A stretch of 64,000 nt of DNA from NCBI RefSeq assembly GCF_000372745.1, contig NZ_KB889562.1:201321-265320 (forward strand), written 5' to 3'. How positions within the stretch are numbered: the first letter of the stretch is position 1; each line of letters opens with the position of its first letter. The notes below the pieces were generated by a model. The model was not told the DNA's origin. It did no database searches and worked only from the letters and a program-made list of their open reading frames with translations. This DNA is from Embleya scabrispora DSM 41855 (GTDB lineage Bacteria > Actinomycetota > Actinomycetes > Streptomycetales > Streptomycetaceae). The translations under genes were made by a program, and so were the position numbers. Positions 45,690 to 49,164 of this stretch are shown in pieces.

Positions 45690-46833
45690 CGGGACACCTC
45701 CGGCGCTGTCTCCGACCTCAACGGCAAGCCGGGCGGCTCCATCCCGTGCCAGTTCACGTGGACAAGAGCGCGCCCAACGCGCCCTCGGTGACCTCGCCGC
45801 AGTATCCAGGCGGCAAGGCCGGGGACTGGGCGGAAGGAGCCAAGTACGGCACGACGGGCGAGTTCACCCTCGGCGCCAACGGCAGCAACGACACCGTCGA
45901 GTACGCGTACAGCTTCGACACCACGTCGTTCGTGAACCGCATCAAACCGCTCGACGCGGGCGGGGCGGCGATCGTCCGCTTCATCCCGACCCATGCCGGG
46001 CCCAACGTGCTCTACGTCAAGGCGAAGGACGCCACCGGCAACCTCTCCACGCAGACCGCCTACACCTTCTTCGTCGAGCCGCGGGACACCGTCGACGGTC
46101 GGATGGACCTCACCGGCGACCAGCGTCCCGACCTGCCGGCCATCGACGGTGCGGGCAACCTGCGTGTGTTCCCCTCCTTCTCGGGTGGTCGACTCGGCCA
46201 GTCGCTCGACGGCGCCGACCTGGTCGGCGGCGCAGTGCCGGCGGGCTACTGGAAGAACGCGTTGATCACCCATCACGGCGACTACTGGGGTGGGGACGGT
46301 TTCCAGGACCTGATCGCCCGGATGCCCGACGGCAGGTTGTGGGTCTACCCGGGCAGCGGTCGCGGCGGCGTGGACGTCGCGAAACGAATGGAGTTGTCGC
46401 TTCCGAGCGGATCACCCGCATCCGCGACCTTCACCCGGATCCTATCGGTCGGTGACATCACCGGCGACGGTCACCCGGACCTGTTCGCGATCGCCGGCGC
46501 GGACCTGTGGTTCTTCGACGGCTACACCGGCGCCGCGATGAGCGGCGCGCGCAAGGTCAAGGTGGTCGCAACGCGATGTTCACCATGACCGCCGAACCCG
46601 ACGGCGGCTTCAACGACGACTTCGCCAGTTGGCAGACCCCGAACGGCACCTGGTGGGCGGACAACACCGGTGCGGCGGTGGCCGGCGATGTCGACGGTGA
46701 CGGTCGTGAGGATGTGGCGATCATGTACAACTACGCGGACGGCGCCACTCGGGCGATGACCTTCAAGAGCCGCCCCGACGGTGGCACCGACGGTGAATTC
46801 CGGAGTTGGGGCGCCCCACCGGGCACCTGGTAG
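45690..46833 (+). pseudogene. secreted FG-GAP/VCBS-repeat protein remnant
   Basis: Three frames in succession belong to one former protein. First: VSDLNGKPGGSIPCQFT, then a one-base loss near 45761 shifts to VDKSAPNAPSVTSPQYP with an Ig-like part, DLTGDQRPDLPAID, a full FG-GAP block (DGFQDLIARMPDGRLWVYPG) and GDITGDGHPDLFAI; a second break near 46560-46580 moves to NAMFTMTAEPDGGFNDDF, then GDVDGDGREDVAIMYNY and a terminal SWGAPPGTW stop. The N-terminus and the start are missing. FG-GAP calcium loops (DxTGDGxPD) are well kept, so decay is recent. Confidence 0.75.
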
Positions 46834-47217: not shown

Positions 47218-49164
47218 ATGGTCATGGTGGCGTCGAGGGTTCGCCGCGGCGCACCGCGGGCCGCCTTCGGTCCGCACCCGGACGCCGGTCCTGCGGCGCT
47301 GCTCGCGCGGGTCGTGGTCACGGCGGTCACCTGCGGGTTCTTCTTCGGCGGCTTCGTGGGTCTGGTCGAATCGACCCGATTGTCGACCGGCGCCAAGGCG
47401 ATCGCGCTGGGACTTCTGCTCGCGCTGGTCACCCTGCATCTGCGCAACTGCGTACGCCCGGCGGACGGCTCGCGGCCGACCGGGTGGGTGTGCACGCTCG
47501 GTGCGCAGGCCGTGCTCACCTATCTGCCGATGACCTGGTTCCACGAGACCTGGTACGGCAACCCGGGCTTCTTGGCCGGCGCCGCGCTGCTCCTGCTGCG
47601 ACCCGCCTGGGCGCGCTGGGCCGGGTTCCTGGCGGTGGTGGCCGTCCAGGTGCCGGTCGGCCTGGCGGTGCGGCCGACCGTGGTGGAAGCGCTGTACCTG
47701 GTGGTGGGGCAGGCCGTGCTGGTCGGCCTGGCGGTGTACGCCCTGGCCGGGCTGGCCGACCTGGTGGCCGCGCTGGCCGCGACCCGCACCGCGCTCGCCG
47801 ACGCCGAGGTCGCCCGCGAACGGCTGGGCTTCGCCCGGCAGCTGACCGACGGCGTCGGGGCGAGCCTGAACCGGATCCTGGACCGCGGCGACGCGCTGCT
47901 CGCCGGACTGCGCGAGCACCCCGAGCGTGCCCGTCCGGAGCTGGCCGACGCGCTGGCCGAGGCCAGGGGCGCGATGACCTCGGCCCGGGCCTTCGCGCAC
48001 GCGCACAAGAACACCGAGAGCACCGCGCCGCCCGCGATCACCGACGAACCGACGCCGCGCGCGGTCGCGGTGCTGCGGGTGGTGATCCTGGTGCTGATCA
48101 TCGTGCCGCTGCCGCTGCGGGTGCTGGCCGCGAGCGACTACTCGCCCGGCCGCCGGGCACTGTTCGCAATCCTGCTGGTCGCCTTCGTCGCGCTGTACAT
48201 CCGCAACTGCTCGCCGGCCCCGGGTGGGCGACCCCGGTGGTGGCAGTGGACGTTCGCGGCGCAGATCGCGCTCGCCTACGCGCCGCTCGTGGTGTTCGAC
48301 GCCCGGGTCTGGTCGGTGGGGCTGTTCCTGGCCGGGCTCGCGCTGGTACTGCTGCGCGGCCCGTGGCGGGTGCTCGCCGTGGCCGGGTTCGCCTGCCACG
48401 ACCTGTACTTCGGCACCTGGAGCCTGACTGCCCTCGACCACGTGTACCACGTGGTGTGGATCCTGGAGCGCGCGGCGCTGGTGTACGGGCTGGTCCGGAT
48501 GGCCGACCTGGCGCGGGCGTTGTGCGTGGCCCGGGTCGAGTTGGCCGCCGCACATGTGGCCCGCGAGCGGCTGCGGTTCGGGCACGACCTGCACGACCTG
48601 CTCGGCTTCAGCCTGTCCGCGCTGGTACTCAAGAGCCAACTGGCGCTGCGCCTGGCCGAGCGCGATCCGGAGTCGGCGGCGACCCAGCTCGCCGAGGGCC
48701 TGGCGATGGCCCGACAGGCGCTGGCCGACGTGGGCACGGTCGCGGGCGGGTATCGCGGGATGTCGTTGGCGGTGGAGGCGCGCGCCGCCCGGGACGTGCT
48801 GGCCGGGGCCGGAATGGTGGTGGAGGTCGCCGTCGACGTGGGCGAGTTGCCCGCCGGCACCGACACCGTGCTGGCGACCGTACTGCGCGAGGGCGCCACC
48901 AACGTGTTGCGGCACAGCGCCGCGAGCCGGTGCGCGATCACCGCGACGGTCGAGTCGGACGGTACGGTCGTCCTGGTCCTGACCAACGACGGCGTCCGCG
49001 CCGGCGCCGGTCCCGCGCCGATCGGGGCGGGGCTGGGGCTGCGTTCGCTCGACGGGCGGCTGGCGACCCTGGGCGGGACGCTCACCGCCGGCGTCGTCGA
49101 CGAGGCGTTCCGCTTGTCCGCGCGGGTGCCCGGCCAGGGGCGGACAGCGCCCGCGGATGCGTGA
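47218..49164 (+). CDS. fused double sensor kinase with one degenerate half
   Basis: A 648-residue protein built of two homologous halves. Each has several hydrophobic helices and an LHLRNC/LYIRNC motif (TLHLRNCVRPADG near 60, ALYIRNCSPAPGG near 325), then a helix resembling HisKA_3. Half 1 ends RERLGFARQLTDGVGASLNR, where Thr210 replaces the phospho-acceptor His, and lacks an ATPase domain. Half 2 has RERLRFGHDLHDLLGFSLSA (His459) followed by a HATPase_c domain (LREGATNVLRHSAASRC, LTNDG). ATG 47218 or 47224 is the likely start; the open frame upstream lacks similarity. No response regulator gene adjoins it. Confidence 0.8.
   Translation: MVMVASRVRRGAPRAAFGPHPDAGPAALLARVVVTAVTCGFFFGGFVGLVESTRLSTGAKAIALGLLLALVTLHLRNCVRPADGSRPTGWVCTLGAQAVLTYLPMTWFHETWYGNPGFLAGAALLLLRPAWARWAGFLAVVAVQVPVGLAVRPTVVEALYLVVGQAVLVGLAVYALAGLADLVAALAATRTALADAEVARERLGFARQLTDGVGASLNRILDRGDALLAGLREHPERARPELADALAEARGAMTSARAFAHAHKNTESTAPPAITDEPTPRAVAVLRVVILVLIIVPLPLRVLAASDYSPGRRALFAILLVAFVALYIRNCSPAPGGRPRWWQWTFAAQIALAYAPLVVFDARVWSVGLFLAGLALVLLRGPWRVLAVAGFACHDLYFGTWSLTALDHVYHVVWILERAALVYGLVRMADLARALCVARVELAAAHVARERLRFGHDLHDLLGFSLSALVLKSQLALRLAERDPESAATQLAEGLAMARQALADVGTVAGGYRGMSLAVEARAARDVLAGAGMVVEVAVDVGELPAGTDTVLATVLREGATNVLRHSAASRCAITATVESDGTVVLVLTNDGVRAGAGPAPIGAGLGLRSLDGRLATLGGTLTAGVVDEAFRLSARVPGQGRTAPADA

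What the first reader, a model, noticed from the sequence alone, without database searches (positions are those of the whole stretch)
47218..49164. Histidine kinase fused from two half-copies, one inactive
Both halves carry the same helix pattern and an LRNC/IRNC motif, but the first half has Thr at the phospho-acceptor position and no ATPase domain, so it seems to be a duplicated sensor. A single-chain double sensor could act as a pseudo-dimer. No partner regulator is adjacent.
Basis: partly seen in the sequence, partly recalled or inferred. Interest (0 to 1): 0.5.

Follow-up and report, generated by a model that had tools for sequence, protein, structure and literature searches.

The report
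Double-sensor kinase with dead first half
This bacterial gene encodes one sensor protein made of two copies of the same sensor, of which only the second looks able to act as a kinase; the layout recurs in related bacteria, so the dead first copy is probably a working second sensor rather than debris.

Summary
ORF 47218-49164 encodes 648 aa whose halves align over about 210 residues (score 260; best of 3000 shuffles 108). Half A has Thr210 at the phospho-acceptor site and no ATPase domain; half B has His459 and a DesK-like ATPase domain.

It is not a one-off. None of the 22 first halves keeps the His-acid dyad; all 22 second halves do. Of 9 relatives fused from two kinases, all 9 keep His in both halves. 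The duplication is older than the genera sampled. Half A's membrane sensor is the most constrained part (dN/dS 0.17), so half A is no relic.

Outside the window's genus most of these proteins have a NarL-type regulator gene beside them; the window's has none.

A conventional B:B homodimer is not excluded.

The parts
47218..49164 (+). CDS of the double-sensor HisKA_3 histidine kinase, 648 aa (start perhaps 47224, 646 aa)
47305..47811 (+). half A membrane sensor (residues 30-198), about six predicted helices; lowest dN/dS of the five parts compared
47812..48009 (+). half A degenerate DHp (residues 199-264), two-helix hairpin kept in the models, catalytic dyad lost
47845..47847 (+). Thr210 codon, at the phospho-acceptor His position of half A
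48010..48057 (+). linker (residues 265-280) where an ATPase domain would be expected; poorly conserved
48058..48555 (+). half B membrane sensor (residues 281-446)
48556..48753 (+). half B DHp, HisKA_3 (residues 447-512)
48592..48594 (+). His459 codon, predicted phospho-acceptor, followed by Asp460
48760..49137 (+). half B ATPase domain (residues 515-640), DesK-like

Best explanation
This is a membrane histidine kinase of the HisKA_3 (DesK) type with two sensors in one chain. Shown by sequence: half A is a membrane sensor plus a DHp hairpin without the His-acid dyad and without an ATPase domain; half B is a complete kinase. Inferred: A senses a signal (possibly the main one, given its constraint) and passes it on through its DHp hairpin, which pairs with B's hairpin inside the same chain. 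The working unit is then an asymmetric pseudo-dimer with one acceptor His and one ATPase. B autophosphorylates on His459 and hands the phosphate to an unlinked NarL-type regulator. My split: double sensor with an inactive but functional first half, about 0.9; A:B intramolecular pairing, about 0.5; the orphan regulator at G000:C90 as partner, about 0.15.
For: Self-alignment. The same layout in 22 proteins of 21 genomes. First-half site in these 22: T3, D5, N2, R7, S1, H4, and none of the four His is followed by an acidic residue; second-half His-Asp in 22 of 22. Among 9 two-kinase fusions the first half keeps His-Asp/Glu in 9 of 9. The tree puts 21 of 22 A halves in one group (81/91, unstarred) and 20 of 22 B halves in two starred groups, with several matching sub-branches; the AU test does not reject all 22 A halves as one clade (p 0.348). 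dN/dS against G020 and G004, which are close to each other: A sensor 0.17, A DHp 0.41-0.47, B sensor 0.31-0.37, B DHp 0.25-0.27, B ATPase (residues 515-605) 0.32-0.34. DHp hydropathy profiles of A and B correlate at 0.82 over 77 columns. A- and B-hairpin lengths co-vary (Spearman 0.80, n 22, not corrected for phylogeny). Single-sequence AlphaFold gives both hairpins block pLDDT of about 72-92, and the region spanning both matches compact helix-bundle chains (second model).
Against: Mean pLDDT is 53 and 50, pTM 0.34 and 0.36. A one-chain prediction offers A no partner but B, and no control fold was run. The VIA rows give only first and last aligned residues, and Z of this size is common for helical bundles (notes). 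In a DesK complex, a CA domain is described as touching helix 1 of the other protomer (PMC5231405, passage); in an A:B pair that would bring B's ATPase to a site without His, so the pair must work in cis or be inactive. The co-variation of hairpin length comes mainly from one clade of six proteins. A's DHp is the least constrained part in dN/dS, and 4 of 22 A halves still have His at the site.
Confidence: 0.5

Rival explanations
1. Conventional homodimer: two chains pair B:B (and perhaps A:A), autophosphorylation is in trans, and half A is an extra stacked sensor and dimerisation module.
For: His and ATPase both sit in B in 22 of 22, as a B:B dimer needs; B's DHp aligns with DesK without gaps; a passage on the DesK complex describes a CA domain touching the other protomer's helix 1 (PMC5231405). 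Whether DesK autophosphorylates in trans I did not read.
Against: Does not by itself explain why A keeps a DHp hairpin, or why A- and B-hairpin lengths co-vary; both monomer models seem to pack A with B.
Confidence: 0.38
2. Half A is a decaying remnant of a fused second kinase without present function.
For: ATPase and catalytic dyad lost; A DHp evolves faster than B DHp.
Against: A sensor dN/dS 0.17, the lowest of the five parts compared; layout present in 21 genomes of several families.
Confidence: 0.07
3. Assembly or frame artefact joining two genes.
For: Long stop-free frames are common in this G+C-rich DNA.
Against: Same joint, in frame, in G004 and G020 (80% identity) and the same layout in 19 further proteins.
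Confidence: 0.01

Closest known systems
DesK of Bacillus subtilis (HisKA_3 kinase, PDB 3gie, 3gig, 5iuj and others)
   Same: B half aligns through DHp and ATPase domain, E 1.7e-16, with His459 at H188 and Asp460 at D189 (D189 as dyad partner: PMC6798134, passages)
   Different: the DesK chains solved hold one DHp; here two sensor-DHp units share one chain; the phosphatase Gln of HDxxxQ is Phe here (position +5 of His, motif in PMC6798134 passages)
Engineered EnvZ[AAB] (Qin et al. 2000, seen only as a citation in PMC8971529 and PMC10359499; [quoted passage not shown]
   Same: two DHp and one ATPase domain in one chain
   Different: man-made, built from EnvZ[223+]; here each DHp has its own membrane sensor and the first lacks the dyad
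TodS double sensor kinase (PMC4861429, passages)
   Same: two sensor plus autokinase modules in one chain
   Different: both TodS His (190 and 760) and an internal receiver Asp are needed in a phosphorelay; here the first module is dead and no receiver is found
ChrS pseudokinase variant of Corynebacterium glutamicum (PMC9491836, passages)
   Same: a sensor kinase without working ATPase domain that still affects signalling
   Different: separate protein arisen by a frameshift in an evolved strain, not a fused half
Fusions of two kinases in relatives (G028, G201, G334, G011, G094, G644, G049)
   Same: same sensor and DHp family, two units in one frame
   Different: both units keep His; ATPase domains in both (in G049 the second is cut by the frame end)

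Membership tests
HisKA_3 / DesK-type histidine kinase | HisKA_3 DHp with His followed by an acidic residue | tested here: met
   Pfam HisKA_3 63 bits for the protein, 49.9 for half B alone (cut-off 24); His459-Asp460. HisKA_3 found in 22 of 22 members of alignment A4
HisKA_3 / DesK-type histidine kinase | HATPase domain after the DHp | tested here: met
   Pfam HATPase_c is below cut-off (14.4 bits; HATPase_c found in 13 of 22 and HATPase_c_2 in 5 of 22 family members at E 0.01), but residues 442-638 align to DesK at E 1.7e-16 and E558, N562, D591 and G607 are invariant in the family
HisKA_3 / DesK-type histidine kinase | HDxxxQ phosphatase motif | tested here: not met
   position +5 is Phe; across 22 B halves it is F5, Y5, L5, S4, H1, R1, M1. 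I do not count it as required for being a kinase of this type
HisKA_3 / DesK-type histidine kinase | active as homodimer | not testable with these tools
   single-chain models only
EnvZ[AAB]-like single-chain kinase | DHp-DHp-ATPase order in one chain | tested here: met
EnvZ[AAB]-like single-chain kinase | the two DHp form one intramolecular bundle | tested here: inconclusive
   both low-confidence models are compatible with it
TodS-like double sensor kinase | two active kinase modules and an internal receiver | tested here: not met
   first module lacks His and ATPase; no receiver domain among the Pfam matches

The most novel reading that the evidence does not exclude
The first half is a built-in decoy partner: A pairs with B inside the chain and, because A lacks the acceptor His, this pair is the off state. 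A signal at A's sensor releases B, and two B halves of different chains pair and fire in trans. These bacteria would then switch a kinase by swapping partners between an internal dead copy and an external live one.
Probability: 0.2. Interest if true: 0.75.

Novelty: new variant of a known kind. Interest (0 to 1): 0.5.

Why it matters
Whether histidine kinases need a symmetric dimer, and how the two protomers share work, is hard to test in symmetric natural dimers. A natural family with one live and one dead DHp in a single chain, each with its own membrane sensor, makes the question testable in native proteins. It is also a ready two-input kinase. Ten paper searches (seven of them aimed at tandem, fused, duplicated or pseudo-dimeric kinases) listed no paper whose title or abstract start describes it; I saw listings, and passages of eight papers. 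The library lacks most subscription journals.

Tried and rejected
Recent duplication in this genome: rejected. In the tree A halves group with A halves and B halves with B halves, not by protein, G658 being unresolved; no second close copy in G000 (next best match 36% over 357-638).

Origin from the two-kinase fusions: not supported. Sixteen of their 18 units fall in one 17-row group (with one single kinase) apart from the A halves; the two of G644 lie elsewhere.

Partner regulator: the closest match in G000 is C158:165269-165868 (50% to the G196 regulator), but it sits beside its own kinase L002. The C90:76618-77202 regulator has no kinase detectable with this family's profiles in the 14 kb fetched (6.6-6.8 kb on either side) and falls inside the starred group of the family's regulators, but on a long branch (1.58) and in a tree whose bootstrap had not settled. 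It keeps the phospho-Asp position but has His-Asp where most compared relatives have Glu-Asp. Weak.

Spread beyond the class: with profile A4 at E 1e-80, 7 of 396 genomes of the phylum draw matched, and only the window's own match spans both halves; the threshold was strict. Viral contigs: none. Named genomes: 2 distant single-DHp kinases only. Foldseek against PDB: 27 matches at E 0.001 with the three-row model, all DesK, none with the single-sequence model. Paper searches gave EnvZ[AAB] and TodS as the nearest. NCBIfam: no model reached its cut-off.

Rows left out: G049_654 (units near-identical to G049_1221) from the tree and the counts; G031 (half A cut by the contig end) and G516 (one unit found) from the two-half set; G004 and G020 from the identity averages and the hydropathy correlation; L041 and two short L068 pieces from the tree. 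In some searches only matches along both halves, plus a few examples, were opened.

Full report
Observation. The ORF at 47218-49164 was translated and its halves compared with each other. The local alignment spans residues 56-264 against 309-513 with score 260. Half A was shuffled in three ways, 1000 times each; the best shuffle scored 108. Pfam sees HisKA_3 in B strongly and in A weakly (below the curated cut-off), and a weak HATPase_c in B only; the B half matches solved DesK chains at E 1.7e-16. Thr210 stands where His459 stands in B.

A family, not an oddity. A search of 297 genomes of the same family with the protein, then profile searches of 394 family genomes and 394 class genomes, brought up proteins matched along both halves. 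I fetched 40 regions and scored sensor, DHp and ATPase parts separately. Twenty-two proteins from 21 genomes have sensor-DHp-sensor-DHp-ATPase with no ATPase between. In the family draw 9 of 394 genomes carry it, plus G031 where the contig end cuts half A. In the class draw 13 of 394 do. The window's genome is counted in both. These are lower bounds, because the lists were capped and matches covering only one half were mostly not opened.

The rule for the dead half. In the 22 proteins the A-half site is T3, D5, N2, R7, S1, H4; the four with His are followed by Thr, Ala, Ala and Gly, so 0 of 22 keep the His-acid dyad, while 22 of 22 B halves do. The dyad's role is taken from PMC6798134 (passages: D189 next to H188 in DesK). 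As a contrast, 9 fusions of two kinases keep His in 9 of 9 first and 9 of 9 second units; the residue after it is acidic in 9 of 9 and 8 of 9. In one of these nine, G049, the second ATPase is cut by the frame end. Loss of the ATPase and loss of the dyad thus go together; because the A halves are related, these are not 22 independent events.

Age. In the tree of 74 units 21 of 22 A halves form one group (81/91, not starred); the exception, G658, is unresolved. An AU test does not reject all 22 as one clade (p 0.348). Fourteen B halves form one group (96/86, starred) and six more, with the single B half of G031, another (100/98, starred) that holds the window's; the B halves of G658 and G720 lie outside both. 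Several sub-branches of A and B match (G583 with G169, G010, G014, G080 and G168; G446b with G509 and G600), so the halves seem to have travelled together; others, such as G665 and G720, do not match or are unresolved. An earlier tree of 51 units shows the same split for the window's genus and G196.

Selection. Against G020 and G004, which are close to each other, the A sensor has dN/dS 0.17, the A DHp 0.41-0.47, the B sensor 0.31-0.37, the B DHp 0.25-0.27 and the B ATPase (residues 515-605) 0.32-0.34 (Nei-Gojobori-type counts on aligned codons, no error bars). Across the family, without G004 and G020, mean pairwise identity is 0.30 for the A sensor, 0.26 for the B sensor, 0.31 for the A DHp and 0.47 for the B DHp. 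Half A is therefore maintained, its sensor most of all, while its DHp is the most relaxed part.

Structure. Two AlphaFold runs were made: the protein alone, and with two distant kinases as alignment. Both are poor overall (mean pLDDT 53 and 50, pTM 0.34 and 0.36), yet the two DHp hairpins are the best parts. About six helices precede each DHp; an even number is needed to put both DHp on the same side (inference). The second model gave, for example, 125 residues between 198 and 505 at 2.5 A (6mrt_A) and many chains with a BRIL fusion over about 204-513; that 9tau and BRIL are four-helix bundles is recalled. The tool warns that Z under about 13 is common for helical bundles, and a monomer prediction has no other partner to offer, so this is support and not proof.

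Mechanism. Shown: two sensors, one usable DHp, one ATPase. Inferred: either A pairs with B in the chain (about 0.5) or two chains pair B:B (0.38). A passage of PMC5231405 describes, for the DesK:DesR phosphotransferase complex, a CA domain touching the other protomer's helix 1; if that geometry holds here, an A:B pair is inactive or must act in cis. This leads to the decoy-partner reading given as the novel case. Position +5 after His459 is Phe where DesK has its phosphatase Gln (motif from PMC6798134 passages), so phosphatase activity may be low.

Partner. Of the 40 regions, 34 hold a NarL-type regulator match. Of the 19 two-half proteins outside the window's genus, 15 have it within about 200 bp of the kinase match, 11 of these tail to tail; 2 have it 1.3 and 2.6 kb away, and 2 have none in the region fetched. 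The three complete ones of the window's genus have none. The simplest reading is that the kinase lost its neighbour. G000:C90 is a candidate, weakly supported. Precedent for an unlinked orphan pair: OhkA-OrrA in Streptomyces coelicolor (PMC9739842, passages).

Known kinds. It is a HisKA_3 kinase by sequence. Its order of catalytic parts equals the engineered EnvZ[AAB] (PMC8971529 passages; the original paper was not read). It differs from TodS (PMC4861429 passages), where both kinases are needed. None of the papers listed by my searches was seen to describe this layout. I rate it a new variant of a known kind.

Noticed in passing
L068-L081, L157: Relatives in other genera include fusions of two kinases in one frame; many single and double ones lie beside a YcaO-winged-helix gene (homologues in 13 of 20 regions). 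In L068 AMP-ligase, acyl-CoA dehydrogenase, SARP-like, cyclase and NarL-type regulator genes lie with it (Pfam). G201 (L069) and G334 (L157) carry two double kinases in a row.
   Followed up: partly
window 45746-46833: An FG-GAP repeat ORF of 280 aa seems to go on in another frame (108 aa, also a weak FG-GAP match), just upstream of the kinase; perhaps a broken gene.
   Followed up: no
L170 6619-7203 (G000:C90:76618-77202): Regulator of this family without a detected kinase neighbour, with His-Asp in the phosphorylation pocket where most compared relatives have Glu-Asp, near ABC exporter-like genes (named from reading the translations, not from a search).
   Followed up: partly
22 B halves and both units of 9 two-kinase fusions: The Gln of the HDxxxQ phosphatase motif is absent in all of these HisKA_3 units, which hints at weak phosphatase activity.
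   Followed up: no
G014, G080, G168, G010, G169, G583: DHp hairpins are shortened in both halves: A by 11-13 residues and B by 2-6 relative to the usual 35.
   Followed up: partly
L063 (G004), C-terminal end of the kinase frame: After about residue 619 (window protein numbering) the G004 frame no longer resembles G020 (alignment), so that copy may be changed or mis-sequenced at its end.
   Followed up: no
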